A stretch of DNA of 61,067 nt, taken from Anabaena subtropica FACHB-260. GTDB lineage: Bacteria; Cyanobacteriota; Cyanobacteriia; Cyanobacteriales; Nostocaceae. The notes under the pieces were generated by a model, which was not told the DNA's origin, did not search any database, and saw nothing but the letters and a program-made list of their open reading frames with translations. Position numbers and translations under genes: made by a program. Below, piece by piece: positions 26,972 to 42,645 of the stretch. The stretch is from positions 1 through 61,067 of the forward strand of contig NZ_JACJRF010000032.1 of the NCBI RefSeq assembly GCF_014697105.1. Reading direction: 5' to 3'. Within the stretch, counting starts at the first letter, position 1, and each line of letters starts with the position of its first letter.

Positions 26972-27730
26972 ATGAATGACTTAACAAAGGTATTTATTGC
27001 GCCTGAGGAAATTGTTAATTTTCTCAAAAAAGATATGAATTTAAAGGAAGTTTATCAAAAAATTTTATTTCAAAGGTTGATCTGGCAAGTAGCCGAGGTC
27101 AGAGGAATCACGGTGACAACAGAAGAAATTGAAACTGAAGCCAACCGCCAGCGCCGGGAAAAGCGTTTAGAGAAAGCCGCAGATACAATGGCGTGGTTAG
27201 AAGATCAGTTGGTTTCCCCTGAGGATTGGGAAATGGGTATTCGCGATCGCTTATTATCTCAAAAGTTGGCTAATTTCCTATTTGCTGACAAAGTGGAAGC
27301 TTTCTTTATCCAAAACCAACTAGAGTTTGAGCAAGTTAGTCTCTACCAAATTATTGTCGATTCAGAACAACTTGCTCAGGAAATATACTACCAAATCGAA
27401 GATGATGAAATCAGTTTCTATGAGGCTGCATACTTATATAATATTGATGATTTTCGTAGGCAAAAATGCGGTTATGAAGGTAAAGTTTATCGGTTCGCAC
27501 TTCCATCAAATATAGCTGCTGTCATATTTAGAACTTCACCTAAACAGTTAGTTGGCCCTCTGCAAACTGAGCAAGGTTATCACCTATTTATGGTAGAAGA
27601 ATTTGTGTCTGCTGAATTAACTCTAGAACGATATCAAGAAATTCTCGGTAATATGTTTCACCAATGGTTAGTTACGGAACTAAATAATATACTTAATTCG
27701 TCCATTACTCATCATTTACCAAAATACTAA
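26972..27730 (+). CDS. Parvulin-like peptidyl-prolyl isomerase (first copy of the island)
   Basis: A 252-residue protein of the PpiC/SurA-like type. The N-terminal helical region (LKEVYQKILFQRLIWQVAEV and EEIETEANRQRREKRLEKAA) resembles SurA-N/trigger-factor-like helices. The parvulin-like domain follows (SLYQIIVDSEQLAQEIYYQI, DEISFYEAAYLYN, GPLQTEQGYHLFMVEEFVSA). No signal peptide is present, so it acts in the cytoplasm. It is clearly related in layout to the protein at 34973-35755. Such proteins are often encoded beside cyanobacterial peptide exporters, presumably assisting precursor folding or delivery. The catalytic competence cannot be judged by eye. Confidence 0.8.
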   Translation: MNDLTKVFIAPEEIVNFLKKDMNLKEVYQKILFQRLIWQVAEVRGITVTTEEIETEANRQRREKRLEKAADTMAWLEDQLVSPEDWEMGIRDRLLSQKLANFLFADKVEAFFIQNQLEFEQVSLYQIIVDSEQLAQEIYYQIEDDEISFYEAAYLYNIDDFRRQKCGYEGKVYRFALPSNIAAVIFRTSPKQLVGPLQTEQGYHLFMVEEFVSAELTLERYQEILGNMFHQWLVTELNNILNSSITHHLPKY

Positions 27731-29146
27731 ATAGTCATAATACACATTAAATATTTGTCATCATAATGACGTCAAATGTGAAGTTGATTGATTTGATAGT
27801 TTTAATGTTAGCTTGAATACTACTAAGATGAGTAGTTATTATTTATTCATAGTAAAAATATTTTACTCGGTAAATAAGCTATTTTAAAAATTAATTTCGC
27901 TATAAGATTTATACTTAATTTGGGAAATGGATGTATCCGGGAAATACCCACCAAGATATGATACATTGACTAATGCTTACTCTACAGATGTTGAATTTTT
28001 TCAAAAATTAAATTTTCATACATTCTTTGTTTCATGCTTAAGATAGAGGGAAATTTAATATTTTTATTTAGAATATTCTATTTTAATGCTGAACAAATAA
28101 AATGGAGAATAAAATTATGTGCCTTATTTTTTTGTCTATTAAATAGAAGAAAAACTAATAAATTATTCAGAATCCAATCGGAACAATAAGTAATATTTAA
28201 CTTTCAGTGAGTTTAATATAAAGATTTGATGAAGTTTAGGATTTTTTGATAAAACCTATTGACTATAGGATGAAAAATTCTTAAAAGAATAACAGTGGTG
28301 TTTAGCACTAAATTGATAACTGTCACTTTTGCTCTAATTTTGTCTTTTAATTGACTGTAGGCACATCATATTCGGCTGCTGAGAAAACAATTAGTGTTAG
28401 GTTAATGTAAATATATTTTTTACATTTATACCTAACCGTATATGTTTTTTTATTCCAATGTATAACAGGCTTCACCTTCTTTTTAGTGTCTAGAAACCTA
28501 AGTTTAAAGATTGAGAGGCTTACCTCTGAAGCAAAATTGCAGAGTTCGGTAACATCCTAAGAATCAGAGTAAGTATTAGAATTCAGTAAATTACCTGCAT
28601 TGAGCTAAATACCAGCATTACACCAAGCTTCAAAAAAACTATCAAGTTATTAAGGTTAACCAGTGCAGAACAATTGGATTACACTTACGTCTCAAAAGGT
28701 TTGACTATTTTGACTACCGGATTCTGAATGCTAAATGCTGATAAATAGCCACCCTAATTTTCTTACAAATAGGGGGGTAAACACTCATCATCTGTATATC
28801 AGTGACAGATGAATTTTGTATCTAGAAAACTAGTACTGCAAGGTGAAATGTGTAATAGCTTACGGCTAGGCTAGGGCCTCAATAACTAAGGCTAAGGACA
28901 ACGTAATTCGTAATTACGTTTTTGCAAGGTTTTCTACCAATATTTCTGATATTTGGCTTATCTATGCCTTGTTTTATTAGTACTTTGTCAAGTTATTTTT
29001 GGGGTTTGTAGTAAGCACTATAGTACTTAGAAGAATCAGGGCTAAAAACCTGAATAAGAACTTACTTATCCATAAATTTAAACTTGGCTTACTAATAGTT
29101 GCAATCCATAAATTTGCCGCAATTTTACATTAGACAGCAACTGGTA
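27731..29146. other. 1.4-kb gene-free A/T-rich region inside the peptide island
   Basis: All frames are closed; the longest candidates are under 20 codons. It contains two notable hairpins: 28396-28436 (GTTAGGT..AATGTAA / TTACATT..ACCTAAC) and 28900-28924 (9-bp stem AACGTAATT/AATTACGTT followed by TTT). The size and A/T richness suggest a long regulatory region or a decayed gene. Nothing further can be recognised. Confidence 0.5.
28900..28924 (+). terminator. Terminator-like hairpin in the 1.4-kb gap
   Basis: Stem AACGTAATT / AATTACGTT with a three-base loop (CGT) is followed by TTT. The stem is weak in G+C, so this could be a poor terminator or a chance palindrome. Confidence 0.4.
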
Positions 29147-29737
29147 ATGATTATGTCAAATACCTTTACTCAAGACACAGTTTTTAGTATTTACGAAAAC
29201 CAAGAAAGCAAGTTTTTAACGCCTTTCCAACGTAAGGCTTTACTCAAACATTTACAAAATAATCTACAGCCAGAATATCGCCGACGCATCGAAATTATGT
29301 TAATGGCAGATATTGGTAAATCTCAAACTCAAATTTGCGAAATATTGGGTTGTTCGCAAGAAATGGCACGTTATTGGATTGGAATAGCCGAAGCGGGTTT
29401 AGCACACAAATGGAACGAACGTCCAATAGGTAGACCGAAGATTGTTAATGCTCAATATTTAGAAAGACTAAGAGAATTGGTGAGTAATAGTCCTCGTGAT
29501 TATGGCTATGCTTTTACTTATTGGACTGCTCAATGGTTAAGCAAGCATTTAGCCGCAGAGTTAGGGATTGAAATTAGCGATCGCCACATCAATCGCCTGC
29601 TCAAACAAATGGGACTTTCTACTAAACGCAAAAGTTCCCAGCCAAAACCAGCTAATCCTATTGAGGATGCTGGGATTACAATTGGTGACTTACAAACTAC
29701 CTCTAAGCCTAGTTTTAATTGGTCGATTAATTCGTAA
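29147..29737 (+). CDS. Helix-turn-helix protein derived from an IS630-type transposase N-terminus
   Basis: About 196 aa from ATG 29147 (a second ATG lies two codons on; an upstream TTG is also possible). Residues 20-85 (YRRRIEIMLMADIGKSQTQI, CEILGCSQEMARYWIG) are the first HTH of IS630-type transposases. ERPIGRPKI and TYWTAQWLSKHLAAELGIEI, SDRHINRLLKQMGLSTKRK form the second winged HTH. The DDE catalytic domain is absent, replaced by a short tail. It lies 145 bp upstream of the exporter gene in the same direction. It may be a domesticated regulator of the island; that is inferred from position. Confidence 0.75.
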   Translation: MIMSNTFTQDTVFSIYENQESKFLTPFQRKALLKHLQNNLQPEYRRRIEIMLMADIGKSQTQICEILGCSQEMARYWIGIAEAGLAHKWNERPIGRPKIVNAQYLERLRELVSNSPRDYGYAFTYWTAQWLSKHLAAELGIEISDRHINRLLKQMGLSTKRKSSQPKPANPIEDAGITIGDLQTTSKPSFNWSINS

Positions 29738-29882
29738 TTATGCTTGGTCTCAATAATTCAAAATTATCCAGAAAATCCCGAATTTTGAATTTTGTTGGCG
29801 CAAGCTTTCCCTACGGTGGCCTTAGCCTAGCCGTAGGCTATGAGAGAATTTTGAATTCCCCAAAGGGGTTGGAGGTAGGGAA

Positions 29883-32800
29883 ATGCCATCAGGGTTTTCC
29901 CGGCAATATTTAGCCGAACAACTCACCCAACTCTTGGGTGAGTCTTTATCCGAAAGAGAATTAGAAAAGTGCATTTCAGCTTTAGAAATTATTGAACCAC
30001 CCATTGCCAAACAATTTTGGCAAGCAGCTACAGCATCGGCGGGTATTCATATTGTTCTTGGGGGTAAAGTCAGGCTGCTAGATAGCACTCACAACTTAAT
30101 TACTACCCTCTCAACTGGTACATCATTTGGGGAATTGACGCTGTTTCCTGACGCAGACTTTATTCCTTATGTCGCCAGAGCTTCAGTAAACTTAAAACTC
30201 GGCTATCTTCCCCAAGCAATTTTACAAGAATTGATGGGTGAAAATACCAGTATTGGCGATCGCCTGAAAAAACACGCCGAAACTTGGGATTTGTTGGTGC
30301 TATGTTGTCAAAATTCCTTATTGCCGCAAAATAGCTCGGTGGAGGAGATAATTAAAGCCCTAGCTTTATTTGAACGGCATACTTTAGATATTGGCTCACT
30401 ACCAAATCAAATCTTTGAAGATACTAAGCTTTGGCTGTTGCGTCGGGGAGAATTAGTAAAAAATAGTGGACGCACATTTCAACCTGGAAAAATCTCTCAA
30501 TACAGCAAACAGGGAACTTGGCGGGTAACGCAATCCGCTATTGTCTACATCCTCAAGAATGATAATTGGCAAGTAGCACAGGAATATTGGCCGGAATTGG
30601 GGAGTAGGGAGTGGGGAGTGGAGAGTGGGGAAAATGCTACTCAATCTCCCTTACTTAATCTTCCATCCCCAGTTATTAAGGAACCAGAACCCAAGCCAAA
30701 ACAAAAGCAACGACGAGCCTATTTTCCTAGTCCGCGTGTAAAAGTTGGTCATTTATGGGGACGACTGACTAAGCGCTATCCCATATTTGAACAACAAAGT
30801 GCGGCTGATTGTGGTGCAGCTTGTTTGGTGATGATTAGCCGCTATTGGGGTAAGCGTTTGAGTGTAAATCGGCTGCGGGATTTAACTAACGTCAATCGTG
30901 ATGGTGCATCGCTGAAAGGTTTAACAGCAGCAGCCGAAACCATTGGTTTTACTACCCGTCCGGTAAAAGCAAGCCTGGATAAATTGGCACAACAACAGCT
31001 ACCAGCGATCGCACACTGGGAAGGTGTACACTACATTGTAGTTTATGAAATTAATAAAAGACAGGTAATTGTCGGTGATCCGGCAATCGGACAACGTAAC
31101 CTTAGCCTGGCTGAATTTAAAGCTGGTTGGACTGGTTACGCCTTGTTACTACAACCGACAACTGAACTCAAAGAAAACCAGGAAGCGAATACATCATTCT
31201 GGCAACTGTTTGAGTTAGTTAAACCCCACACGCGGGTGTTGGTGGAGGTATTCAGCGCTTCTTTATTGATTCAAGTGTTTGGACTAATCACACCCCTATT
31301 TACTCAGTTGTTATTAGATAGGGTGATTGTTCAAGGAAGCACTTTGACATTAAATGCAGTGGGTTTGGGGTTAATGATATTTGGTTTATTCCGTGTTGCA
31401 CTCAACGGACTAAGGCAATATTTGCTAGACCATACAGCCAACCGCATCAGCATATCTCTACTGGTAGGTTTTATTAAACATACCTTCCGTTTACCCTTGT
31501 CGTTTTTTGAGTCGCGTTACGTCGGGGATATTGTTTCTCGCGTCCAAGAAAACCAAAAGATTCAGCGCTTTTTGACTGGGGAAGCATTGTCAATCATTTT
31601 AGACTTGCTGACAGTGTTTATCTATGTAGCATTGATGTTTTGGTACAGTTCAGCAATGGCGTTGCTGAGTTTAGCGATTGTGCCGCCTTTTATGTTGTTG
31701 GCAATCATTGCTACACCATTTTTACGTCGCATTAGTCGGGAGGTTTTTAGTGCTACAGCTAGCGAGAATAGTTATTTAATTCAATCCCTCTCTGGTATTC
31801 GCTCAATTCGCTCGATGGCAATTGAACAAACAGTCCGTTGGCATTGGGAAGAACAACTGAATAATGTCATCAGAAAAACCTTCACCGGGCAGATAATTAG
31901 TAACAAATTACAAATTTTTAGTTCTGCCTTAGAAACTCTGGTGACTACGGGATTACTTTGGTTTGGGGCATGGTTGGTGATTCAAAACCAACTGACGATA
32001 GGGCAATTAGTCGCCTTTAATATGCTGTTGGGTAATATTATTCGCCCCTTTCAGAGGTTGGTAGTATTGTGGAATCAATTGCAAGAAGTAGTTATTTCTA
32101 CAGAACGAATTAACGATGTATTAGAAGCAGAACCAGAGGAAGATTTACAACGCCAACATCGGCAATTTTTACCAAGATTACAAGGACATATTCGCTTTGA
32201 TAATGTCACATTTCGTTATCATCCAGAAAGCGATCGCAACATCTTAGAAAATCTCAGCTTTGAAATCAAGCCTGAGCAAACCGTGGCTGTGGTAGGGCGG
32301 AGTGGTTCCGGCAAAACCACCCTGTTTAAACTGATTTTGGGTTTATATCCCCCGACAGATGGAAAAGTTTTAATTGATGGGCAAGATGTGACTAATATAG
32401 CCCTGCGATCGCTCCGTTCACAAATCGGTGTTGTCGATCAAGATACCTTTTTATTTGGCGGCACAATCCGCGAAAATATCAGCATTGCTCACCCAGACGC
32501 TCCTTTAGAAGAGATTATTGCCGTCGCCCGTTTAGCAGGAGCAGATGACTTTATCAAGCAAATGCCAGTAGGATATGAAACCCAAATTGGTGAAGGTGGG
32601 GGGATGTTATCTGGCGGACAACGACAACGTTTAGCGATCGCCCGTGCTTTGTTAGGAGACCCCCGTCTACTGTTGTTAGATGAAGCAACCAGTCATCTCG
32701 ATTCTGAATCAGAACGTATAATTCAAAACAATCTGAAAACTATACTCAAAGGGCGCACCAGTATTATCATTGCCCACCGCCTGTCCACCGTGCGCCATGC

Positions 32801-32921
32801 AGACCTGATCCTGGTTTTAGATCGCGGCTTATTAGTCGAAACTGGAACCCACGATGAATTAATTGCCAGAAGAGGTCATTATTTTTATCTCAACCAACAA
32901 CAATTGGCACAAGCAGGTTGA
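29883..32921 (+). CDS. HetC-like peptidase-containing ABC exporter (cNMP-type domain + C39 + ABC)
   Basis: A 1012-residue exporter that should cut double-glycine leaders and secrete the peptide. Residues about 50-130 resemble a cyclic-nucleotide-binding domain (GGKVRLLDSTHNLITTLSTG, SFGELTLFPD). A linker with a heptad-repeat insertion (about 235-265) follows. The C39 peptidase has catalytic Cys310 (AADCGAACL), His383 (VHYIVVYE) and Asp399 (GDPAIG), so it is intact. Six membrane helices span about 430-720. The ATPase has Walker A (GRSGSGKTTLFK), signature LSGGQRQR, Walker B LLLLDEATSH and the His switch (IIAHRLS). The layout matches HetC, the exporter needed for heterocyst development. RBS GGAGG lies nine bases before ATG. 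Confidence 0.92.
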   Translation: MPSGFSRQYLAEQLTQLLGESLSERELEKCISALEIIEPPIAKQFWQAATASAGIHIVLGGKVRLLDSTHNLITTLSTGTSFGELTLFPDADFIPYVARASVNLKLGYLPQAILQELMGENTSIGDRLKKHAETWDLLVLCCQNSLLPQNSSVEEIIKALALFERHTLDIGSLPNQIFEDTKLWLLRRGELVKNSGRTFQPGKISQYSKQGTWRVTQSAIVYILKNDNWQVAQEYWPELGSREWGVESGENATQSPLLNLPSPVIKEPEPKPKQKQRRAYFPSPRVKVGHLWGRLTKRYPIFEQQSAADCGAACLVMISRYWGKRLSVNRLRDLTNVNRDGASLKGLTAAAETIGFTTRPVKASLDKLAQQQLPAIAHWEGVHYIVVYEINKRQVIVGDPAIGQRNLSLAEFKAGWTGYALLLQPTTELKENQEANTSFWQLFELVKPHTRVLVEVFSASLLIQVFGLITPLFTQLLLDRVIVQGSTLTLNAVGLGLMIFGLFRVALNGLRQYLLDHTANRISISLLVGFIKHTFRLPLSFFESRYVGDIVSRVQENQKIQRFLTGEALSIILDLLTVFIYVALMFWYSSAMALLSLAIVPPFMLLAIIATPFLRRISREVFSATASENSYLIQSLSGIRSIRSMAIEQTVRWHWEEQLNNVIRKTFTGQIISNKLQIFSSALETLVTTGLLWFGAWLVIQNQLTIGQLVAFNMLLGNIIRPFQRLVVLWNQLQEVVISTERINDVLEAEPEEDLQRQHRQFLPRLQGHIRFDNVTFRYHPESDRNILENLSFEIKPEQTVAVVGRSGSGKTTLFKLILGLYPPTDGKVLIDGQDVTNIALRSLRSQIGVVDQDTFLFGGTIRENISIAHPDAPLEEIIAVARLAGADDFIKQMPVGYETQIGEGGGMLSGGQRQRLAIARALLGDPRLLLLDEATSHLDSESERIIQNNLKTILKGRTSIIIAHRLSTVRHADLILVLDRGLLVETGTHDELIARRGHYFYLNQQQLAQAG
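30598..30640 (+). repeat. In-frame G-rich heptanucleotide repeats in the exporter gene
   Basis: Four to five tandem copies of GGGGAGT variants (GGGGAGT AGGGAGT GGGGAGT GGAGAGT) are translated as LGSREWGVESGEN in the linker between the cNMP-like and C39 domains. This repeat type is otherwise intergenic in Nostoc-type genomes. The frame is kept. Confidence 0.75.
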
Positions 32922-32936
32922 GGAACTGGGAACTAC

Positions 32937-33012: not shown

Positions 33013-33058
33013 CTAGATGATACTCCATGTTATATCCCACATTTCCGCTAAATAATTT

Positions 33059-34606
33059 ATGCCACATCCATCTGTTAATTCATCATCTGTACTTGTTCAA
33101 CAACAGCCGGATCAGCTGCAACGAGGTCAAGATGCTCATGACTTCGTTGATTATCGGACACAGACAGGAACGGAGACAAACGATTGGTTTTACGGCACAG
33201 AAGAACTACTAGATGCTTTACCGCAGCGCTGGACGCGCTCCATGCTGTATTTGCTCATCAGCTTTACAATCGTTGTTTTACCTTGGGCAATGTTCACCAA
33301 GGTAGATGAAACTGGCAGCGCCAGAGGGCGTTTAGAACCCCAAGGCGCAACGCAAAAATTAGGTGTTGCGATTACCAGTAATGTCAAAGCTGTGAATGTG
33401 GAAGAAGGAGCGACTGTCAAAGCCGGACAAGTGCTATTGGAATTAGATTCTGATGTGTTGCAAACACAGGTAGAGCAAGCGCAGACAAGGTTAGAAGAAC
33501 TGATCAATCGTCAAGGACAACAAGAACTACTCAAAAACCAATTGATGTTAACAATTAACATCCAACAACAGCAAAATCAAGCCCAAGAATTAGAAAAGAT
33601 GGCTCAAGTCCATCAGGCGCAGCAAAATCTTGATGCTAGACAAAGTACATATAACTTACAAAAATTAGAAAAATTGTCTCTAGTTGAACAAGCTAGGCAA
33701 AATATTAATTCCGCTCAATTAGCTAGGAATTTAGCTAATAGTCGTTTGCAAAGAGATATTAAGGAAGTTGCACGCTATCGCCAACTGTTAAAACAAGGTG
33801 CGATCGCGCAAATTAAAGTTGTAGAACTAGAAAAGATAGCTGAAGAAAGTCAACGTTCTCTATTGCAAGCTAATGCTGATTTTACTCAAGCCCAATTACG
33901 CTTGCAAGAACAAGGCAGCCGTTATCAAACAACTGTCAGCCAAACTTTAGCTGACATTGAGCAAGCAAAACTCCGGCTACAAGAACAGCAAAGTAGCTAT
34001 CAAAGCCTTGTACAAACAGGTAAATTGGCGCTGTTAAGAAGTCAGGAACAACTCAAAGACCTGCAAAACCAACTAACGACATTGCAATCAGAAATCATCC
34101 AAACCAAGAGCCAGATTAACGCCTTCAAGATTCAAATGCAACAAAGAATAGTGCGATCGCCTGTTGATGGTACGATTTTTGATCTGCCTATCGACAAACC
34201 AGGCCCCGTAGTTGAAGCTGGACAGATCGTTGCTCAAATTGCTCCCAAGAATGCAGCATTAGTTCTCAGAAGCTCAATGCCTAGTCAACACAGTGGTTTC
34301 TTGAAGGTAGGAATGCCAGTTAAAATCAAATTTGATGCCTATCCTTTCCAAGATTATGGAGTATTGCCAGGACGTGTTAGCTGGATTTCTCCTGACTCGA
34401 AAATACAAACTACAAGCCAGGGCAACATAGAAGTTTATGAAATGGATATTACCCTAGAGCATCCTTATATTCAAGCTGGTAATAAGCGGATTTCCTTAAC
34501 TCCTGGTCAATCAGCAACCGCCGAAGTAATTATCCGTCAGCGTCGAGTTATTGATTTCATCTTAGACCCATTCAAGAAGTTACAAAAAGGTGGGTTAGAG
34601 CTTTAA
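33059..34606 (+). CDS. HlyD-family membrane fusion protein
   Basis: A 515-residue periplasmic adaptor that pairs with the ABC exporter to reach the cell surface. A cytoplasmic N-terminus (about 60 aa) is followed by one membrane helix (MLYLLISFTIVVLPWAMFTK, about residues 61-80). Then come the lipoyl half-motif (LGVAITSNVKAVNVEEGATV, KAGQVLLELDSD), a long coiled coil rich in Gln/Leu (about 135-360), the second lipoyl half (IVRSPVDGTIFDLPIDKPGP) and the C-terminal beta barrel (VGMPVKIKFDAYPFQDYGVL). It directly follows the exporter in the same direction. Confidence 0.93.
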   Translation: MPHPSVNSSSVLVQQQPDQLQRGQDAHDFVDYRTQTGTETNDWFYGTEELLDALPQRWTRSMLYLLISFTIVVLPWAMFTKVDETGSARGRLEPQGATQKLGVAITSNVKAVNVEEGATVKAGQVLLELDSDVLQTQVEQAQTRLEELINRQGQQELLKNQLMLTINIQQQQNQAQELEKMAQVHQAQQNLDARQSTYNLQKLEKLSLVEQARQNINSAQLARNLANSRLQRDIKEVARYRQLLKQGAIAQIKVVELEKIAEESQRSLLQANADFTQAQLRLQEQGSRYQTTVSQTLADIEQAKLRLQEQQSSYQSLVQTGKLALLRSQEQLKDLQNQLTTLQSEIIQTKSQINAFKIQMQQRIVRSPVDGTIFDLPIDKPGPVVEAGQIVAQIAPKNAALVLRSSMPSQHSGFLKVGMPVKIKFDAYPFQDYGVLPGRVSWISPDSKIQTTSQGNIEVYEMDITLEHPYIQAGNKRISLTPGQSATAEVIIRQRRVIDFILDPFKKLQKGGLEL

Positions 34607-34803: not shown

Positions 34804-34972
34804 AAATTTATGCTATTTATTAAGAATGAAATCGGACTATCATATTAATTATTGAAGATTGAAAACTATCACTAGATAGAGTCTAGAAAACATTTATCAC
34901 GCAATCATAATAAATGAATAATTACTGCAAAATATCAATTTAATTTAGTTGAAAAACGGGAGAGAACGTAAT

Positions 34973-35755
34973 ATGGATAAATTATTGAAAATGTCAGCCG
35001 AAGACATTATTAATCACCTGAAATTATCTTTCCAAGTTCCTAGTATATTAGAAGCGATCGCTACTCAGAGAATTATTGCCCATACAGCCGCAGAAGTCGG
35101 AATTGAATTAAGTGTAGAAGAACTACAACAAGCGGCTGATAGTATGCGCTTGGCTAACCGCTTACTGAAAGCAGATGATACTTGGAATTGGCTACAAAAA
35201 CACTACCTAACTATAGATGATTTTGAAGAAGTAGCGAAAACAAACTTACTGTATATGAAATTAGCGGAATATTTATTTGCAGAAAAAGTTGAACCTTATT
35301 TTTATGCTCACAAAATTGATTATACTGGAGCGGTAACTTATGAAGTTATTTTAGATGACGAAGACTTAGCTTTAGAGTTATTTTATGCTTTACAAGAGGG
35401 CGAAATCAGCTTTCAAGAGATCGCCCGTCAATATATCCAATATCCCGAAATTCGCCGCGCTGGAGGGTATCAAGGTACTCGCTATCGTCAAGATTTTCGT
35501 CCAGAAATAGCAGCCGCAGTTTTTGCTGCAACCCCTCCCCAAATTCTTAAACCAATAATTACACCCCAAGGAGTACATATAATTGTTGTTGAAGAAATCA
35601 TTACACCAGAATTAGATGAGTCACGACGGATTCAAATACTTAAAGATTTTTTTACTAATTGGTTACAACAACAAATTACTAATTTAGAACTTGTGGCTGA
35701 CCTTTCTCAAAATGGCTATTCTCCATCCTCATCAGAATTGCCAAAACCAGCCTAA
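34973..35755 (+). CDS. Parvulin-like peptidyl-prolyl isomerase (second copy of the island)
   Basis: 260 aa from ATG 34973, chosen over an upstream TTG because GGGAGAG precedes it. Same family as 26972-27730: N-terminal helices (ILEAIATQRIIAHTAAEVGI, VEELQQAADSMRLANRLLKA), then the parvulin-like part (VTYEVILDDEDLALELFYAL, EISFQEIARQYIQYPEIRRA, GGYQGTRYRQDF, IITPQGVHIIVVEEI). There is no signal peptide. It follows hlyD on the same strand at a distance of 366 bp. Likely an accessory of precursor handling. The identity between the copies is low, so the duplication is old. Confidence 0.85.
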   Translation: MDKLLKMSAEDIINHLKLSFQVPSILEAIATQRIIAHTAAEVGIELSVEELQQAADSMRLANRLLKADDTWNWLQKHYLTIDDFEEVAKTNLLYMKLAEYLFAEKVEPYFYAHKIDYTGAVTYEVILDDEDLALELFYALQEGEISFQEIARQYIQYPEIRRAGGYQGTRYRQDFRPEIAAAVFAATPPQILKPIITPQGVHIIVVEEIITPELDESRRIQILKDFFTNWLQQQITNLELVADLSQNGYSPSSSELPKPA

Positions 35756-35908: not shown

Positions 35909-35986
35909 ACCGTCAATTTGGAATAATTTTTTTTGGTGTTCCCTTATTGAACCACATAGGCACAGAGTAAATAATTTTAAAATCTG

Positions 35987-36280
35987 TTAAAGATGACTTG
36001 AGTCTATAGCTATAATCTTTGTTTTTATCGCCACGAACTTAACATTTATACTATTGGTTTTACGAATTTTAATAATGTTAGGTGTGGGATTATTTTTACG
36101 TAAGCGAATATAGGTACGATAAGGGATATATGTAAGAGGATTATAACCAACTGTCTGGAGGATTAATACACAAGCCCAAGAATACTTACCAGTAGATATA
36201 GCCTTAAGAATAGCCTCCCATTCTTCAGTGAGAATTGCACAGTCAGAAAGTTGATGATGCTGGGAAAGTTCTTGAGTCAT
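35987..36280 (-). CDS. HetP-like protein, short form
   Basis: A 97-residue protein whose segment [20 protein letters not shown], followed by [14 protein letters not shown], matches the conserved core of HetP, which promotes commitment to heterocyst formation. HetP and several homologues occur in Anabaena PCC 7120, and some are short like this one. The C-terminal 35 residues (basic, [20 protein letters not shown]) do not match HetP. It lies downstream of the HopA1/kinase genes on the same strand and opposite the HetC-like exporter. In PCC 7120 hetC and hetP are adjacent too. The family call is from memory of the motif; the role in this island is unknown. Confidence 0.75.
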
Positions 36281-36420: not shown

Positions 36421-37503
36421 TTACAAAGGTGTATAGATATCTTCGGAGTAAGCATTGAGGTAAGGACGCTGCAATTCAATGTTGAGTGAAGAGAAGTGTT
36501 GCAAAATTGCAGTCATCCTACCTATTGGCGTATCATTACCTTGTTGCCAAGCCTCCAACAAACCATTAGCCACAATTTGACAACGGTGTGTCCCAAAACT
36601 TTCGTTTTCGCCAAATCTATGGTTTGGTTCTTCTGCGATCGCTAACCCAGATGCGATAGGCTTAGTAAATAGGGGTACTTGTTCCTGAAAATGCCCTTGA
36701 TTTTCTGCATAAAGCCTCTCTAGGACAGGGTGAACCTTTTCATAGTCATTTTTACCAAAATACAGCACGGCTGAGTCATAGCGGTCATAATCAGAAGGAT
36801 TATATAGTGCTTTAAATGTGAAGTTAACAGGGATAGCGTTGAGGTGTGTAGTCAAATTGTCCATGACAGCAACTGCACCATCTGGTGTTAAGTTGAAGTA
36901 GACACGCACCAGAGTTTGATTGTGTGGTGCAGCACCTGCGTTTGCTACAGCCATATAAAATCCATTTTGGACTAGATTTTTCGGCAGTTGGATACCAACA
37001 GAGTCATCTATAGTATTAGTTTCCAAACCACCCCGTTCAACGTGCAGAGTCAAACCATCTCGATACACAGCGAAAGTACCATCTGATTCTTCTCTAACTA
37101 CTTGCCAACCATAATTCCAGTAGCCAGTACCTCTGTTATTTTCATGCAGGCGATCGTAAAAAGCTAGGTCTACACCCAAAAATGTATTATTCTCTAAATT
37201 TTGGTTGACGGCTAAATTAGATATCTCTGCATCAGATGCCAAAACACTTTTCAATGAACCATTGTAATAAATACCGTAAAGAAAACTACGCAATTGCTGA
37301 CTCAAGTACTTATTTTGTAAATCTGAAGATAATTTTTGAAACCGAGATACTGAAGACTCAGGTAACTCTAAGGCTTTATAGTTTGGATGCTTAATACAAT
37401 ACTGAGACTGAATTTCAAGATTATGAATAATGTCTTGCAATGATATCTGCAATGACTCTGGAATATCCGACAATTGCACAGATAGAGAATCTAATAGTTG
37501 CAT
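36421..37503 (-). CDS. HopA1-family protein, predicted phospho-Ser/Thr lyase of a RiPP pathway
   Basis: A 360-residue member of the family named after the type III effector HopA1. Diagnostic stretches are LRSFLYGIYYNGSL, DLAFYDRLHENNRGTGYWNY, VRVYFNLTPDGAVAVMDNLT, FTFKALYNPSDYDRYDSAVL and ENESFGTHRCQIVANGLLEA. In class V lanthipeptide (LxmY-like) and thioamitide clusters such proteins work with a phosphotransferase-like kinase to make dehydroalanine and dehydrobutyrine. Here the kinase gene is the neighbour (99 bp upstream) and precursor genes lie beyond it on the same strand. The lyase activity is inferred from family and context. Confidence 0.85.
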   Translation of the reverse strand: MQLLDSLSVQLSDIPESLQISLQDIIHNLEIQSQYCIKHPNYKALELPESSVSRFQKLSSDLQNKYLSQQLRSFLYGIYYNGSLKSVLASDAEISNLAVNQNLENNTFLGVDLAFYDRLHENNRGTGYWNYGWQVVREESDGTFAVYRDGLTLHVERGGLETNTIDDSVGIQLPKNLVQNGFYMAVANAGAAPHNQTLVRVYFNLTPDGAVAVMDNLTTHLNAIPVNFTFKALYNPSDYDRYDSAVLYFGKNDYEKVHPVLERLYAENQGHFQEQVPLFTKPIASGLAIAEEPNHRFGENESFGTHRCQIVANGLLEAWQQGNDTPIGRMTAILQHFSSLNIELQRPYLNAYSEDIYTPL

Positions 37504-37602
37504 AGAGATTTGTCCATAAATGATTTTGAGAGATGAGGGGGATGAGGGAGATAGAAAGATAAGGTAAGTAGAAATTCTTCCCTATCTCCCCCCACTCCCT
37601 AA

Positions 37603-38775
37603 TTAACGCTGAGACAAACTTGCAGGTGAAATATCTGATAACTGCACACCAAGAATTGTGGGGATAGATGCTTCTGGACGACACAACAAACTTTTGGCGA
37701 CTTGCAGCATACAAATACCTGCATTCCCAAAGGTTTTTTCATACTGGAGTTGAGCTTGAATAGCGGTAACTAAAGCTAAACCACAAAATTGCATTACCCG
37801 TTGTAAGAAATCTGGCCGATGTTCTAAGATTTCTGGGAAATTAGTGAGATAAGCCGTTACTAACTCTCTCATTGAAGGTTGGAGAACATACAAGGGGGTA
37901 GCTGCTAGACGTAAAGACTCTTCAAGAGCAATTGATTTACCAGTAACCATGCTGTACAACCAAATTTGCAAGTAGCTGGCGATGACTGTACCTAAATCAT
38001 TTGCGGGGTCTCCCCAATTACCACGTTCCCAGTCAATTAAGCGGACAATATTTTCATCATCTGCATCTTCCCAATTGAGAGAGAGAAGAATATTGTTCAA
38101 CTTCAGGTCATTATGGGTGAGACAACAGGGAGTAAAGCTATTGAGTAATTGTGCGATCGCCTGACCCAAACTATCGTAACGTTGATATAGAGCAAAAAAT
38201 CTCAGACCATCAGCAGGAACCTTACCAAATATTTCTGGAGCCAGTCTTTCTAATCCCCGATTTAGATTAGGTGTTGTGGGGTTAAGTGTAGTATCACTAG
38301 GATTTTGAAAGAACTCTCGATACTTTTCACTGTTAAATGATGTGCGATGAATTAATGCCAAAGTATTGCCAACTGCCTTTGCTAGCTGAATGGGAAATAA
38401 ATTTAAATTCTCCTTGGCATAAAAATCCATCAAATCTCGATAATTATCAAGATAATTGAAAATAATAATAGAATTTTCCCAATTAAACTGTACTGCTTCT
38501 GATAAACGGGAACGTATATGGCTAAGTTCTGGAAATTTTCTCACAAAATCGTGAATGCGCCATTCTAGCAAAAATTCACCAGTTGTTTTTCCTTCTAAAT
38601 TATGACGCTCTTGTTTAACAAGCAGTTTCCTCCCGTCTGGAAAAGTAACTAATAAATTAAAGTTTTTAGCAGGTTTTAGCTCTATTTTGCTTAAGGACTG
38701 CTCATCAGAAGTACACAAATTTAACGAAATTAGGTACTCGAATACATTTTGAGAACTCAAGATAAATGGTGGCAT
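37603..38775 (-). CDS. Aminoglycoside-phosphotransferase-like kinase, predicted peptide Ser/Thr kinase
   Basis: A 390-residue APH/choline-kinase-fold protein. The ATP-site lysine is in GRKLLVKQERH. The catalytic loop is CLTHNDLKLNNILL (HxDxxxxN) and the metal-binding motif VRLIDWERGNWGDPANDLG, all intact. Paired with the HopA1-like protein, it corresponds to LxmK/TvaC-type kinases that phosphorylate Ser/Thr before elimination. It is downstream of the precursor genes on the same strand and 99 bp before the HopA1 gene. An antibiotic or small-molecule kinase is the alternative, less likely here. Confidence 0.85.
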   Translation of the reverse strand: MPPFILSSQNVFEYLISLNLCTSDEQSLSKIELKPAKNFNLLVTFPDGRKLLVKQERHNLEGKTTGEFLLEWRIHDFVRKFPELSHIRSRLSEAVQFNWENSIIIFNYLDNYRDLMDFYAKENLNLFPIQLAKAVGNTLALIHRTSFNSEKYREFFQNPSDTTLNPTTPNLNRGLERLAPEIFGKVPADGLRFFALYQRYDSLGQAIAQLLNSFTPCCLTHNDLKLNNILLSLNWEDADDENIVRLIDWERGNWGDPANDLGTVIASYLQIWLYSMVTGKSIALEESLRLAATPLYVLQPSMRELVTAYLTNFPEILEHRPDFLQRVMQFCGLALVTAIQAQLQYEKTFGNAGICMLQVAKSLLCRPEASIPTILGVQLSDISPASLSQR

Positions 38776-38943
38776 AGTCAGAAGATGATTTACAACATTA
38801 ATAATTATTTTTTTAGGGTTGCAACAATATGCGGTATTGAACTGATATTGTAAAAGCTACTAAGTTTTTGTTAGATGGGAGCAAACTTGAATCTTTATTG
38901 AATATTTATAAATAAGATTCAAATTAGCTTTAGCTTTTGTTTT

Positions 38944-39165
38944 CTATTGTCTGTTTTTAGCTAAATATGAATCCACTAGTTCTACAATAGTAGCTATTGC
39001 AAATGCTACAATAGCAAATTCAAAAACCTTTTCTACAAATTCTAATATTTGAGTAGGAGAATGATTGTTTCCACCATATATTAATTTACAATCTCCGTCA
39101 TTTAGGTCAATAAAAATTTTTTCCGAATCATTAAAATGTAATTCAGTAATAACTATTTTGGACAT
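38944..39165 (-). CDS. Divergent double-glycine precursor peptide
   Basis: 73 aa from ATG 39165 (an upstream TTG gives 78). The leader MSKIVITELHFNDSEKIFID ends at LIYGG, a double-glycine site. The predicted core begins NNHSPTQILEFVEKVFEFAI and aligns without gaps to the seven tandem peptides: ILEFVEKVFEFAIVAFAI against VLDLAVKGFEFGVITYGI. It is strongly hydrophobic and has no Cys in the core; the only Cys is in the leader. It is the last precursor before the kinase gene. Confidence 0.75.
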   Translation of the reverse strand: MSKIVITELHFNDSEKIFIDLNDGDCKLIYGGNNHSPTQILEFVEKVFEFAIVAFAIATIVELVDSYLAKNRQ

Positions 39166-39287
39166 TTTTGTATTGGTCAAATAACTGACGTTTAATAAAA
39201 ATACTTTAGATAAAGTACTTTTATTGTACTATTATTAAAATCAGAGTTATATCCTCAGCTTAAATTTATACTTAAGAGAGATTACAA

Positions 39288-39315
39288 GCGATTAAACAAT
39301 ATATTGTTTAATCGC
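39288..39315. repeat. Perfect palindrome after the last tandem precursor
   Basis: GCGATTAAACAATA and its complement form a 28-bp perfect palindrome. It is the end member of a series of GCGATTAAG/CTTAATCGC hairpins found after each tandem precursor gene (39631-39666, 39981-40016, 40331-40358, 40709-40736, 41471-41504, 41863-41890, and a weaker one near 41085-41119). Confidence 0.7.
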
Positions 39316-39353
39316 TCATGGCACAATCTCAACAAAGCTATTGAGCTTAGTAT

Positions 39354-39587
39354 TTATGCAGCAGAACTGAAAGAAATTGCCAAGTGTCCAATAGCATCAA
39401 TACCATAAGTGATGACACCAAACTCAAATCCTTTCGCCGCTAAATCTAAAACTCCGTTGGTGCTTTTAGAATAGTTACCACCATGAACGGAATCATCAAG
39501 ATTGTTCAATTCATTAAGGAAGCTTTCAGAATCTTGGAATAATTCTGAACCAGTAGCTTGTAATTCCTTAACAGCAATAAACGCCAT
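39354..39587 (-). CDS. Tandem precursor peptide copy 7 (last)
   Basis: A 77-residue double-glycine peptide. The 37-residue leader begins MAFIAVKELQATGSELFQDS and ends DDSVHGG. The 40-residue core starts NYSKSTNGVLDLAAKG and ends HLAISFSSAA. It differs from its neighbours by Ser for Thr at the second TT position, Ala for Val in VKG and Ile for Lys before the tail, so it is the most diverged of the seven. AGGAGT lies eight bases before ATG. There is no Cys. Substrate of the C39 exporter by inference. Confidence 0.85.
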   Translation of the reverse strand: MAFIAVKELQATGSELFQDSESFLNELNNLDDSVHGGNYSKSTNGVLDLAAKGFEFGVITYGIDAIGHLAISFSSAA

Positions 39588-39703
39588 GATTGACTCCTAA
39601 AATAATTTTGGTTTGCAATGGAAAGTGCAGGCGATTAAGCTGAATATTTTGATATAGCTTAATCGCTGTTGTCTCAATTTCAACAGAGCTTTTAACTTAG
39701 TAC

Positions 39704-39937
39704 TTATAGAGCAGAACTGTAAGACTTAGCTAGGTGTCCGATAGCATCAATACCATAAGTGATGACACCAAACTCAAATCCCTTCACAGCCAAGTCTAAA
39801 ACTCCATTGGTAGTATTAGAATAGTTACCACCATGAACCGAGTCATCAAGATTGTTCAATTCATTGAGGAAGCTTTCAGAGTCTTGGAATAATTCTGCAC
39901 CAGTAGCTTGTAATTCCTTAACAGCAATAAACGCCAT
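39704..39937 (-). CDS. Tandem precursor peptide copy 6
   Basis: 77 aa. Leader as in the other copies (GAELFQDSESFLNELNNLDD, then SVHGG). Core starts NYSNTTNGVLDLAVKG, continues FEFGVITYGIDAIGHLAKSY and ends SSAL. It is nearly identical to copy 5, differing in leader Ala/Ser and core Asn/Lys. Spacers on both sides match the neighbouring unit exactly. Confidence 0.88.
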   Translation of the reverse strand: MAFIAVKELQATGAELFQDSESFLNELNNLDDSVHGGNYSNTTNGVLDLAVKGFEFGVITYGIDAIGHLAKSYSSAL

Positions 39938-40053
39938 GATTGACTCCTAAAATAATTTTGGTTTGCAATGGAAAGTGCAGGCGATTAAGCTGAATATTTT
40001 GATATAGCTTAATCGCTGTTGTCTCAATTTCAACAGAGCTTTTAACTTAGTAC

Positions 40054-40287
40054 TTATAGAGCAGAACTGTAAGACTTAGCTAAGTGTCCAATGGCATCAA
40101 TACCATAGGTGATAACACCAAACTCAAATCCCTTCACAGCCAAGTCTAAAACTCCATTTGTAGTTTTAGAATAGTTACCACCATGAACCGAGTCATCAAG
40201 ATTGTTCAATTCATTGAGGAAACTTTCAGAATCTTGGAATAACTCTGAACCAGTAGCTTGTAATTCCTTAACAGCAATAAACGCCAT
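40054..40287 (-). CDS. Tandem precursor peptide copy 5
   Basis: 77 aa. Leader ends SVHGG. Core starts NYSKTTNGVLDLAVKG and ends HLAKSYSSAL. Same tail as copy 6, which with the identical 116-bp spacer shows the two are the youngest duplicates. Ser and Thr residues cluster at the two ends of the core, with an uncharged hydrophobic FEFGVITYGIDAIG centre. Confidence 0.88.
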   Translation of the reverse strand: MAFIAVKELQATGSELFQDSESFLNELNNLDDSVHGGNYSKTTNGVLDLAVKGFEFGVITYGIDAIGHLAKSYSSAL

Positions 40288-40419
40288 GATTGACTCCTAA
40301 AATAATTTTGGTTTTTAATAGAAAGTGCAGGCGATTAAGAAGTTCAAAACCTAATCGCTCATGCCACAATTTCAACAGAGCTATTGAGATCGATTCTTCA
40401 CGCAGTCAGCAAGTGAATT

Positions 40420-40665
40420 TTAGTAATAACCGTTACCAGCATCGCTGAAAGACTTAGCTAGGTGTCCGATAGCATCGATACCATAAGTGATGACACCAAA
40501 CTCAAATCCCTTCACAGCCAAGTCTAAAACTCCATTTGTAGTTTTAGAATAGTTACCACCATGAACAGAGTCATCAAGATTGTTCAATTCATTGAGGAAA
40601 CTTTCAGAATCTTGGAATAACTCTGAACCAGTAGCTTGTAATTCCTTAACAGCAATAAACGCCAT
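40420..40665 (-). CDS. Tandem precursor peptide copy 4
   Basis: 81 aa. Leader ends SVHGG. Core starts NYSKTTNGVLDLAVKG and ends KSFSDAGNGYY. The tail is four residues longer than in copies 5-7 and ends in two tyrosines. Its upstream spacer (40666-40797) is identical except for one base to the one downstream of the gene. Confidence 0.88.
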   Translation of the reverse strand: MAFIAVKELQATGSELFQDSESFLNELNNLDDSVHGGNYSKTTNGVLDLAVKGFEFGVITYGIDAIGHLAKSFSDAGNGYY

Positions 40666-40797
40666 GATCGACTCCTAAAATAATTTTGGTTTTTAATAGA
40701 AAGTGCAGGCGATTAAGAAGTTCAAAACCTAATCGCTCATGCCACAATTTCAACAGAGCTATTGAGATCGATTCTTCACGCAGTCAGCAAGTGAATT

Positions 40798-41043
40798 TTA
40801 GTAATAACCGTTACCAGCATCGCTGAAAGACTTAGCTAGGTGTCCGATAGCATCGATACCATAGGTAATGACACCAAACTCAAATCCCTTTTCAGCCAAG
40901 TCTAAAACTCCATTTGTAGTTTTAGAATAGTTACCACCATGAACAGAGTCATCAAGATTGTTCAATTCATTAAGGAAGCTTTCAGAGTCTTGGAATAATT
41001 CTGCACCAGTAGCTTGTAATTCTTTAACAGCAATAAACGCCAT
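40798..41043 (-). CDS. Tandem precursor peptide copy 3
   Basis: 81 aa. Leader ends SVHGG. Core starts NYSKTTNGVLDLAEKG (Glu instead of Val before KG) and ends KSFSDAGNGYY, the same tail as copy 4. The rest is as in the other copies. Confidence 0.88.
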   Translation of the reverse strand: MAFIAVKELQATGAELFQDSESFLNELNNLDDSVHGGNYSKTTNGVLDLAEKGFEFGVITYGIDAIGHLAKSFSDAGNGYY

Positions 41044-41180
41044 GATTGACTCCTAAAATAATTTGTGTTTTGCCGAAAGCATAAGCAATTAAGCTTGATA
41101 ACTGAATATTACTTAATCACTTATGCCACAATTAAAACAGAGCTATTTAGCTCGGTCTTTACTCACCAGCTAATGAGAAA

Positions 41181-41426
41181 TTAGTAGTAACCACCATTAG
41201 CAGAACTGAAAGACTTAGCTAGGTGTCCGATAGCATCGATACCATAAGTGATGACACCAAACTCAAATCCCTTCACAGCCAAGTCTAAAACTCCATTGGT
41301 AGTATTAGAATAGTTACCACCATGAACAGAGTCATCAAGATTATTCAATTCATTGAGGAAGCTTTCAGAGTCTTGGAATAACTCTGAACCAGTAGCACGT
41401 AATTCCTTAACAGCAATAAATGCCAT
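41181..41426 (-). CDS. Tandem precursor peptide copy 2
   Basis: 81 aa. The leader has Arg for Gln (KELRATGSELFQDS). Core starts NYSNTTNGVLDLAVKG and ends KSFSSANGGYY. Ribosome-binding AGGAGT is kept. No Cys. Confidence 0.88.
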   Translation of the reverse strand: MAFIAVKELRATGSELFQDSESFLNELNNLDDSVHGGNYSNTTNGVLDLAVKGFEFGVITYGIDAIGHLAKSFSSANGGYY

Positions 41427-41568
41427 GATTGACTCCTAAAAGGATTTGCTTTTTTACTAGAAAGTGCAGTCGATTAAGTTTTATATGTTGATTTTGCTTA
41501 ATCGCTCATTCCACAATTTCAACAGAGCTATTTAGCTCGAAATTTATGCAGTGACTAATGGAAAATTA

Positions 41569-41820
41569 CTAGTAACCGTAACCGCCACCAGCAGAACTGT
41601 AAGACTTAGCTAAATGTCCAATAGCATCGATACCATAGGTAATGACACCAAACTCAAATCCTTTTACTGCTAAATCTAAAACTCCATTGGTGGTATTAGA
41701 ATAGTTACCACCACCATGAATAGAGTCATCAAGATTGTTCAATTCATTGAGGAAGCTTTCAGAATCTTGGAACAATTCTGAACCAGTAGCTTGTAATTCT
41801 TTAACAGCAATAAACGCCAT
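41569..41820 (-). CDS. Tandem precursor peptide copy 1 (first)
   Basis: 83 aa, the promoter-proximal copy. The leader ends SIHGGG, with one more Gly than the others, so the cut could fall after the second or third Gly. Core NYSNTTNGVLDLAVKG to KSYSSAGGGYGY, the longest tail, rich in Gly and Tyr. The 5' leader of the array (41821-42390) has no other gene and presumably holds the promoter. Confidence 0.88.
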   Translation of the reverse strand: MAFIAVKELQATGSELFQDSESFLNELNNLDDSIHGGGNYSNTTNGVLDLAVKGFEFGVITYGIDAIGHLAKSYSSAGGGYGY

Positions 41821-42390
41821 GATTGACTCCTAAAAAAGTATCATTTTGAGCAGTAGTTTCAGGCGATTAAGTTTTTATTTGCTTAACCGTTGATTCAATT
41901 TTTATTTACTTCTTCCATGAAAATCAAGTCTAAAATCTTGATTAACAAGACATAAATAAGTGATATATGTCTATTTTTGAGTTTGATTATTACTGGATTT
42001 AATATTGATATAACAATCCAATTTGATTTTTTTCGCGCAGTGTAGCATAGCCATAGTTACTAGCATAGAAAAGCAATAATTAATAAAAAAGAAGGCTCTC
42101 AATACCGTTCGTTTAAGGAATTTTTGGTTGAGGCAGGCAGGGGGAAAAGAGAAGCAGAGGGAGAGAAGAATTACTGAACAATAATCCTCTTTCCTCCTCT
42201 GCTTCCTTTGCTTATCCGAATAGTATTGAGAAGGCTATTCGATGTGTACTGAAGATTTAAGTATAATAGATAGTAATATTGCAGAAATTGCCTCAAATAT
42301 CTGATGATTTCCATGAAAAATCGCGTGCCTAACTTAATCTGAGCTAAAGCACACGATAATTGTAAGTATTAAGTTGTAATTAGTTAACAA
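41821..42390. other. Upstream region of the precursor array
   Basis: 570 bp without a gene. It contains a first array-type hairpin at 41863-41890 and a pair of complementary purine/pyrimidine-rich arms (GGGGAAAAGAGAAGCAGAGG near 42141, CTTTCCTCCTCTGCTTCC near 42190), an inverted repeat of the kind seen in rsgA. The array promoter on the minus strand should lie between 41890 and 42100; no convincing boxes were found. Confidence 0.5.
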
Positions 42391-42645
42391 CTATTGGGGA
42401 ATACCAAGCTGTTCTCGCAAGTCTTTAATTTGAAAGTCTAGATTATCCATCCATTGACCAAGAATTGCATTTGTATCAGGTATTGAGTTTGTGTCTGGCT
42501 CTTCTAGACTAGTTTCAACTTGTCGTCTTCTACCATATCTTCTTTCTAAACCAGCATACACAGTTTTCATTTCCCAAACAGTGAGTTCATTAATAGATTT
42601 TCCTTCGTCACCGGGAGAAAGGTCAGAGATTTTTATGTTCACCAT
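42391..42645 (-). CDS. Small protein with a precursor-like leader
   Basis: 84 aa with AGGAG ten bases before ATG 42645. The first 32 residues (MVNIKISDLSPGDEGKSINE, LTVWEMKTVYAG) resemble the M.NI.ISDL.P leader type of cyanobacterial double-glycine peptides, and align loosely with MSKIVITELHFNDSEKIF of the divergent precursor. The cleavage site would be AG instead of GG. The remainder is charged (GLERRYGRRRQVETSLEEPD), unlike the hydrophobic cores. It may be a degenerate precursor, or an accessory protein with a leader-like domain. Same strand as the array, upstream of it. Confidence 0.6.
   Translation of the reverse strand: MVNIKISDLSPGDEGKSINELTVWEMKTVYAGLERRYGRRRQVETSLEEPDTNSIPDTNAILGQWMDNLDFQIKDLREQLGIPQ

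What the first reader, a model, noticed from the sequence alone, without database searches (positions are those of the whole stretch)
26972..42645. A peptide-export island that joins a HetC-like exporter, a HetP-like protein, a lanthipeptide-type dehydration pair and amplified precursors
Seen: in 16 kb between aroB and the M16 peptidases lie two parvulin-like genes, an HTH gene, a C39-containing ABC exporter with a cNMP-like domain, an HlyD adaptor, a HetP-like gene, a HopA1-family gene, an APH-like kinase and nine small genes with precursor-like leaders. Known: APH-like kinase + HopA1 proteins make dehydroamino acids in class V lanthipeptides and thioamitides; C39 exporters cut at Gly-Gly. 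Inference: this is one RiPP pathway whose products are modified, cleaved and secreted. I know of cyanobacterial double-glycine bacteriocin clusters, but not of a described product with this gene set.
Basis: partly seen in the sequence, partly recalled or inferred. Interest (0 to 1): 0.9.

Follow-up and report, generated by a model that had tools for sequence, protein, structure and literature searches.

The report
Cyanobacterial cysteine-free dehydrated peptide cluster
This is a gene cluster of a known cyanobacterial kind that most likely dehydrates, trims and secretes a set of small peptides without cysteine, so its product is unlikely to be a classical lanthipeptide; a sister copy of its two modifying enzymes, found in nearly all relatives examined, seems to have lost one catalytic residue and taken on another job.

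Summary
In detail: all genes named are there, and the layout recurs in other genera. The gene set is not new: it combines Wang 2011 'group II' cyanobacterial bacteriocin clusters with Eyles 2021 'Family 1A' HopA1/phosphotransferase clusters. The exporter is not HetC; hetC-hetP lies elsewhere in the genome. 'Lanthipeptide-type' holds for the dehydratase pair only: in 24 M16-type loci the cores of 139 parsed precursors hold one Cys (about 59 expected; their leaders are Cys-poor too), and the genome has no LanC match. Best reading: Cys-free peptides with dehydroamino acids, perhaps at a conserved C-terminal K-S-[FY]-S motif (25 of 26 loci). Precursors occur in 37 of 37 genomes with a lyase-competent pair and in 2 of 9 without. 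By-product: 45 of 46 Nostocaceae genomes carry another HopA1/APH pair without these precursors nearby, often beside phylloquinone genes. Its catalytic lysine is replaced (mostly by Gln), the kinase residues mostly remain, and selection is purifying. It looks like the same complex turned to something other than dehydration.

The parts
26972..27730 (+). PpiC-type parvulin (SurA-like) 1
   Evidence: Rotamase PF00639 38.5 bits, cut-off 21.7
29099..29737 (+). HTH protein resembling the N-terminal part of IS630 transposase; possible regulator of the exporter
   Evidence: NF033545 76 bits, below its cut-off of 100, positions 1-124 of 299; 36 of 37 HTH hits in 102 loci have the exporter directly downstream on the same strand
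29883..32921 (+). Long-type PCAT exporter: cNMP/CAP_ED-like + C39 peptidase + ABC
   Evidence: DCGAACL, HYIVV and GDP motifs of the C39 domain present
33059..34606 (+). HlyD adaptor
   Evidence: TIGR01843 215.3 bits, cut-off 208.65
34949..35755 (+). PpiC-type parvulin 2
   Evidence: PF00639 39.9 bits; TIGR04500 'peptide maturation' 64.2 bits, below its cut-off of 180
35987..36280 (-). HetP-family protein, short, without the C-terminal GG stretch of the genome's own HetP
   Evidence: NF037966 96.8 bits; 51% over 67 aligned positions to own HetP
36421..37503 (-). HopA1-fold phospho-Ser/Thr lyase (LanY-like), catalytic residues R200, K231, R241, Y248 kept
37603..38775 (-). APH-fold kinase (LanK-like); K54, D223, N228, D248 kept
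38944..39180 (-). Precursor, beta type (single copy, next to the kinase gene)
39354..39587 (-). Precursor, alpha type, copy 7
39704..39937 (-). Precursor, alpha type, copy 6
40054..40287 (-). Precursor, alpha type, copy 5
40420..40665 (-). Precursor, alpha type, copy 4
40798..41043 (-). Precursor, alpha type, copy 3
41181..41426 (-). Precursor, alpha type, copy 2
41569..41820 (-). Precursor, alpha type, copy 1
42391..42645 (-). Third peptide type (gamma): leader-like part ends in Ala-Gly, Arg-rich stretch after it
   Evidence: hits in 14 of 102 loci, the window counted
42921..44417 (-). M16 peptidase, first of the pair
   Evidence: PF05193 143.8 bits; hits in 24 of 102 loci
44455..46074 (-). 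M16 peptidase, second of the pair
   Evidence: PF05193 106.7 and PF00675 59.9 bits

Best explanation
A RiPP-like export cluster, a member of cyanobacterial group II / Family 1A. The kinase (37603-38775) phosphorylates Ser/Thr in precursor cores and the HopA1-fold lyase (36421-37503) eliminates the phosphate, giving Dha/Dhb; by analogy with LxmKY they act as a heterodimer. The cores carry no Cys and no cyclase was found, so the product keeps free dehydroamino acids (or is closed by something other than a thioether). The C39 domain cuts after Gly-Gly and the PCAT-HlyD pair exports the peptides; the two parvulins and perhaps the M16 pair help in folding or trimming. Several peptides are made together: seven near-identical alpha copies, one beta, one gamma. 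Shown: gene content, co-occurrence, conserved catalytic residues, predicted fold of the lyase, scarcity of Cys, a conserved K-S-[FY]-S tail. Inferred: actual dehydration, its sites, secretion, and the role of the product (antagonism or signalling).
For: Residues that matter in CaoY (R187, K219, R229, Y236; numbers and mutant data from section 6 of PMC9486802) map to R200/K231/R241/Y248 here. Among 104 HopA1 proteins of 46 Nostocaceae genomes the Lys is kept in 57, and 54 of these 57 have precursors in the fetched stretch; of the 47 without it, 45 have none. phmmer aligns R, K, R and Y with chain 9dk1_B ('Lyase', E 6e-5), which the fold search names as the lexapeptide dehydratase LxmKY (best hit 9dk3_B E 7e-17; model pLDDT 78.9). 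Precursors found in 37 of 37 genomes with a K-type pair and in 2 of 9 without (Fisher p 7e-7, not corrected for kinship). Exporter hits in 41 and HlyD hits in 37 of 54 K+precursor loci, against 4 and 1 of 45 orphan loci. Cores of the 24 M16-type loci: 1 Cys in 6207 residues against 58.7 expected. M16 pair, precursors and K-type HopA1 together in 24 of 46 genomes.
Against: No mass or transcript data. Leaders are as poor in Cys as cores (3 in 5232 residues), so the scarcity is not proper to the core. Ser+Thr are not enriched in M16-type cores (17.9%, the same as in leaders). LxmK model far below its cut-off (78.2 of 315). Eyles 2021 found no conserved Ser/Thr/Cys in Family 1A cores; the S[FY]S tail is absent from 23 of 28 other K+precursor loci and sits in a stretch whose other positions are conserved too. 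13 of 54 K+precursor loci show no exporter hit in the fetched stretch. Three K-type proteins have no precursor hit (L056, L097, L106). Beyond the 46 genomes, Lys-less HopA1 ORFs lie beside precursors without a K copy in L146, L148, L149, L150, L186 and L187.
Confidence: 0.66

Rival explanations
1. A true class V lanthipeptide pathway: dehydration followed by lanthionine or AviCys formation, with Cys supplied by some precursor and a cyclase elsewhere.
For: LanK/LanY-like pair. Some precursors of non-M16 loci carry Cys in the core: 18 of 104 parsed peptides.
Against: No Cys in the cores of the eight alpha/beta peptides of the window; one Cys-bearing core among 139 peptides of 24 M16-type loci; no LanC match in the genome; a single APH hit in the window, so no LanX-like second APH there (the rest of the genome was not searched for one).
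Confidence: 0.06
2. The peptides are exported unmodified by the PCAT (class II bacteriocin-like, multi-component), and the kinase/HopA1 pair acts on another substrate or only regulates.
For: GG leaders plus PCAT/HlyD suffice for export of unmodified peptides (general knowledge); the cores look amphipathic by eye (not computed); Ser+Thr not enriched in cores; some precursor arrays in other genomes lie far from any HopA1 gene.
Against: Genome-level co-occurrence of precursors with the lyase-competent pair but not with the orphan pair; the pair borders the precursor array in the window.
Confidence: 0.23
3. The window's pair phosphorylates the cores without eliminating, so phosphopeptides are secreted.
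For: Expected if the lyase were inactive, as in CaoY K219A (PMC9486802).
Against: R200, K231, R241 and Y248 are all kept in the window protein and in all 57 K-type proteins of the 46 genomes (pattern RYKRY).
Confidence: 0.04

Closest known systems
Group II cyanobacterial bacteriocin clusters (Wang, Fewer, Sivonen 2011, PMC3140520; parts 1 and 2 of 5 of the text read)
   Same: Long-type C39/ABC exporter with CAP_ED domain, HlyD, SurA-like rotamase, frequent HetP-like gene, M16 peptidases, several precursors (3.78 per cluster on average)
   Different: The parts I read do not mention the kinase/HopA1 pair; the window has seven near-identical alpha copies plus a beta and a gamma
HopA1/phosphotransferase Family 1A clusters of cyanobacteria (Eyles 2021, PMC8153245; passages and section 16 read)
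   Same: HopA1 + phosphotransferase, cyanobacterial, conserved GG leader, several precursors, cores without conserved Cys
   Different: Here a subfamily (M16-type) shows near-absence of Cys and a conserved K-S-[FY]-S tail; Eyles reports no conserved Ser/Thr over the whole family. Not compared with the paper's own peptide list
Class V lanthipeptides: cacaoidin CaoK/CaoY (PMC9486802; passages, sections 6 and 7) and lexapeptide LxmK/LxmY (9DK1-9DK3; PMC12141560 passages and section 10)
   Same: Kinase + HopA1-fold lyase dehydratase; same catalytic residues and predicted fold of the lyase
   Different: No Cys in the window cores, no second APH in the window, no LanC match in the genome; GG leader with PCAT export. 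PMC9486802 collected only ORFs with Cys, so Cys-free precursors were outside its set
HetC of Nostoc (PMC10986499, passages only)
   Same: PCAT architecture; HetP-family gene near
   Different: 44% identity over 810 aligned positions to the genome's own HetC, which lies beside hetP with no HlyD-size ORF between them; the window exporter has HlyD next to it and is 61-80% identical to 37 exporters of other HopA1 loci

Membership tests
Group II cyanobacterial bacteriocin cluster | Long-type exporter (extra N-terminal CAP_ED + C39 + ABC) | tested here: met
   (cNMP weak: 24.1 bits, cut-off 27.5; C39 and ABC strong)
Group II cyanobacterial bacteriocin cluster | HlyD and SurA/rotamase genes | tested here: met
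Group II cyanobacterial bacteriocin cluster | M16 peptidases nearby | tested here: met
Group II cyanobacterial bacteriocin cluster | HetP-like gene (frequent, not obligatory) | tested here: met
Family 1A HopA1/phosphotransferase cluster | HopA1 beside phosphotransferase, GG-leader precursors, cyanobacterial | tested here: met
Class V lanthipeptide | LanK + LanY dehydratase pair | tested here: met
   NF038156 cut-off for LxmK itself not reached (78.2 of 315)
Class V lanthipeptide | Cys in the core for (Me)Lan or AviCys | tested here: not met
Class V lanthipeptide | Cyclase (LanX-type second APH or LanC) | tested here: not met
   no LanC match in the genome; one APH hit in the window (second APH sought in the window only)
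Class V lanthipeptide | Thioether in the product | not testable with these tools
   needs mass spectrometry
HetC | Orthology: closest to hetC, beside hetP, no adaptor gene | tested here: not met

The most novel reading that the evidence does not exclude
One enzyme pair has been split into two chemistries in heterocyst-forming cyanobacteria. In clusters like this window it is a working dehydratase that puts Dha into Cys-free, multi-component secreted peptides (at the K-S-[FY]-S tail). The sister pair, present in 45 of 46 Nostocaceae genomes examined and often beside menaquinone/phylloquinone genes, has lost the lyase Lys (Gln in most) but mostly kept the kinase site and is under strong purifying selection: it is a kinase complex that leaves phosphate on its target, with the dead lyase as substrate-binding scaffold, and has a core function outside RiPP synthesis.
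Probability: 0.26. Interest if true: 0.75.

Novelty: new member of a known kind. Interest (0 to 1): 0.52.

Why it matters
Eyles 2021 counted 183 cyanobacterial clusters of Family 1A, and no product turned up in my searches. The Cys-free cores, the conserved Ser motif and the link of the catalytic Lys to precursor-bearing loci make a direct test possible. If the orphan pair is a lyase-dead kinase complex shared by nearly all heterocyst-forming cyanobacteria, it would be a natural-product dehydratase recruited to core physiology, and genome mining by 'HopA1 + APH' alone would overcount RiPP clusters in these bacteria.

Tried and rejected
HetC orthology (rejected; the exporter tree has very long branches, so I rely on identity and synteny). 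Lanthipeptide product (held unlikely for this cluster). HTH gene as a stray IS remnant (held unlikely: 36 of 37 HTH hits lie just upstream of the exporter). Literature: HopA1 with Nostoc, and HopA1 with phylloquinone, found no paper in the held library; PMC4133259 held none of four gene names sought. PDB sequence search for the kinase gave one weak hit (7s3l, E 0.004).

Weak spots of my own tests. The 46 genomes were picked by hand from the 118: 43 with at most 10 contigs plus G000, G035 and G077; G190 (10 contigs) was left out by oversight. Exporter and other neighbour hits are phmmer hits at E <= 1e-5 with the window protein, so 'exporter' can include other ABC transporters (in the window itself a second hit at 57708-59534 is one). 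The Fisher test of Lys against precursors (p 3e-23) is not independent evidence per protein: the tree puts all 47 Lys-less proteins on one side of a branch (support 85/89; the 45 orphans 100/99, with long-branch warnings). The GG cut is a regular expression; 243 of 247 precursors could be cut, and a few cuts are plainly odd. The Cys background is all ORFs over 350 aa in the stretches, spurious ones not removed. The alpha representatives were chosen for having S[FY]S, so 25 of 25 there is by construction; the unbiased figure is 25 of 26 loci. Outside the family three short HopA1 fragments (G084:C8:214397, G084:C10, G019) were not examined as such. Not done: structure of the kinase or of the orphan lyase; a search for cysteine decarboxylase or a second APH in the whole genome; shuffles for the spacer hairpins; expression data.

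Full report
What is there. The window is a whole contig (G000:C31) of a 5.8-Mb genome. Between aroB and an M16 pair lie, on the + strand, parvulin, HTH, long C39/ABC exporter, HlyD and parvulin; on the - strand, gamma peptide, seven alpha peptides, one beta peptide, APH kinase, HopA1 and HetP-like. The alpha copies share the leader MAFIAVKEL.ATG.ELFQDSESFLNELNNLDDS.HGG and a core such as NYSKTTNGVLDLAVKGFEFGVITYGIDAIGHLAKSFSDAGNGYY.

Comparative set. HopA1 (PF17914) has a match in 117 of 118 genomes of the family and in 40 of 148 drawn from the order. I took 46 family genomes, 43 of them with at most 10 contigs: 104 HopA1 places, covered by 102 stretches: the window, L003 and 100 of up to 20 kb. 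An APH partner was found for 103 of 104.

Lyase residues. In CaoY, K219A abolishes and R187A nearly abolishes elimination, and R229Q impairs it (PMC9486802 section 6). By spacing and alignment these are K231, R200 and R241 in the window protein; Y236 is Y248. phmmer against 9dk1_B aligns the same residues. A model of the window protein (30 sequences, pLDDT 78.9) finds LxmKY chain B first (E 7e-17, TM 0.65 by query, rmsd 5.8, 17% identity) and the two Pseudomonas effector structures next. The Lys column is K in 57, Q in 40, E in 5, Y in 1 and N in 1 of 104. K-type: 54 of 57 with precursors in the stretch. Lys-less: 2 of 47, both second copies beside a K copy (L060, L075). A second alignment with 90 more sequences gave the same letter in that column for all 104.

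Co-occurrence. A profile of 32 precursors finds matches (E <= 1e-5) in 39 of 46 genomes: 37 of 37 with a K-type pair and 2 of 9 without (G200 with 2, G224 with 1, both weak). Exporter hits are in 41 and HlyD hits in 37 of 54 K+precursor loci, against 4 and 1 of 45 orphan loci. M16, precursors and K-type HopA1 stand together in 24 of 46 genomes.

Peptides. 247 precursor-like ORFs in 54 loci. In the 24 M16-type loci 139 could be cut at GG-like sites: one core has a Cys; 58.7 Cys residues would be expected from 737 long ORFs and one is seen. Paralogues are not independent; by locus 23 of 24 have none. The leaders are Cys-poor as well (3 in 5232 residues), and Ser+Thr make up 17.9% of cores and of leaders alike, so composition does not single out the core. 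In 30 other loci 18 of 104 cores have Cys. S-[FY]-S near the C-terminus occurs in at least one alpha-like peptide of 25 of 26 loci (24 M16-type plus L009 and L010; the exception is L030), in 5 of 28 other K+precursor loci and in 50 of 2547 small background ORFs. The residue before it is K in most. The beta peptide is a single-copy divergent relative next to the kinase gene.

Exporter. The genome has eight C39 matches and four HetP-family matches. One C39 gene lies beside a HetP gene on contig C17 with no HlyD-size ORF between them: hetC-hetP by synteny. The window exporter is 44% identical to it over 810 aligned positions, 64% to a further long exporter on C17 (L191), and 61-80% to 37 exporters of other HopA1 loci.

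Mechanism. Best supported: phosphorylation by the APH-fold kinase, elimination by the HopA1-fold lyase, cutting after GG by C39, export by PCAT/HlyD. Chemistry, sites and role of the product are inferred. Without Cys and without a LanC match a thioether is unlikely.

What is known. Wang 2011 group II has the same exporter type, HlyD, SurA, HetP-like and M16; M16 as a mark of group II is repeated in PMC4558948 (passages). Eyles 2021 lists 570 Family 1A peptides in 183 cyanobacterial HopA1 clusters with GG leaders and cores without conserved Ser/Thr/Cys. PMC9486802 looked at cyanobacterial precursors too but only at ORFs with Cys. So the cluster is a new member of a known kind.

Orphan pair. The 45 Lys-less HopA1 proteins without precursors form one group (support 100/99), one in each of 45 of 46 genomes (none in G142). 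Kinase residues beside the 47 Lys-less proteins: K54 in 47, H221 in 47, D223 in 44, N228 in 46, D248 in 43 of 47. dN/dS among five same-genus genomes is 0.085-0.106 for the lyase and 0.113-0.177 for the kinase. A 4HBT-type thioesterase gene, directly downstream in the window's own genome (L003), has hits in 39 of 45 loci (38 within 3 kb), and menE-, menC-, menA- and menF-like ORFs of L035 have hits in 34, 33, 32 and 33 of 45. In L035 these four pass NCBIfam cut-offs, the thioesterase does not; its role as DHNA-CoA thioesterase is recalled, not tested. In the window's own genome the other men genes are not beside the pair. Among 47 HopA1 ORFs (two of them halves of one broken gene) from other families of the order, 39 keep the Lys; of the rest one is Q-type, with precursors nearby (L150), and no orphan Lys-less copy was seen. 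Several of the 39 lack R or Y at the other sites. Gene neighbourhood alone does not show a role in phylloquinone synthesis, and loss of the Lys is read from sequence, not assayed.

Limits.

Noticed in passing
L003:6894-9887 (same genome, contig C39) and 44 further loci: Another HopA1/APH pair with the lyase Lys replaced (mostly Gln), no precursors nearby, in 45 of 46 Nostocaceae genomes, often beside phylloquinone genes.
   Followed up: partly
29099-29737: HTH gene like the N-terminal part of an IS630 transposase; directly upstream of the exporter in 36 of 37 cases: perhaps a domesticated transposase HTH acting as regulator.
   Followed up: partly
39181-41568, spacers between small genes: 6 of 7 spacers fold with a hairpin of the kind GCGATTA...TTAATCGC whose stem letters vary (minimum-energy fold only, no shuffles), and the alpha genes share TTTTAGGAGTC[AG]ATC before the start codon; may be a processing or stabilising element.
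   Followed up: partly
42391-42645: Third peptide type with Arg-rich stretch, hits in 14 of 102 loci; a similar-looking ORF at L061:6022-6264 has a leader ending in GG.
   Followed up: partly
35987-36280: HetP-like protein lacks the C-terminal part with GG that the genome's own HetP has (L201:4737-5216).
   Followed up: no
G257:C1:3635850-3637211, G243:C1:1239503-1240631, G221:C1:798328-799777 and 4403347: Precursor arrays far from any HopA1 gene of the same genome: modification in trans or export unmodified.
   Followed up: no
L060, L075, L110, L113, L177, L178, L179, L185: Loci with two HopA1 genes near each other, one K-type and one Lys-less: a possible further loss of the lyase within clusters.
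   Followed up: partly
L126:9657-10739: A HopA1 gene beside precursors and exporter, split by a stop codon; left as two pieces.
   Followed up: no
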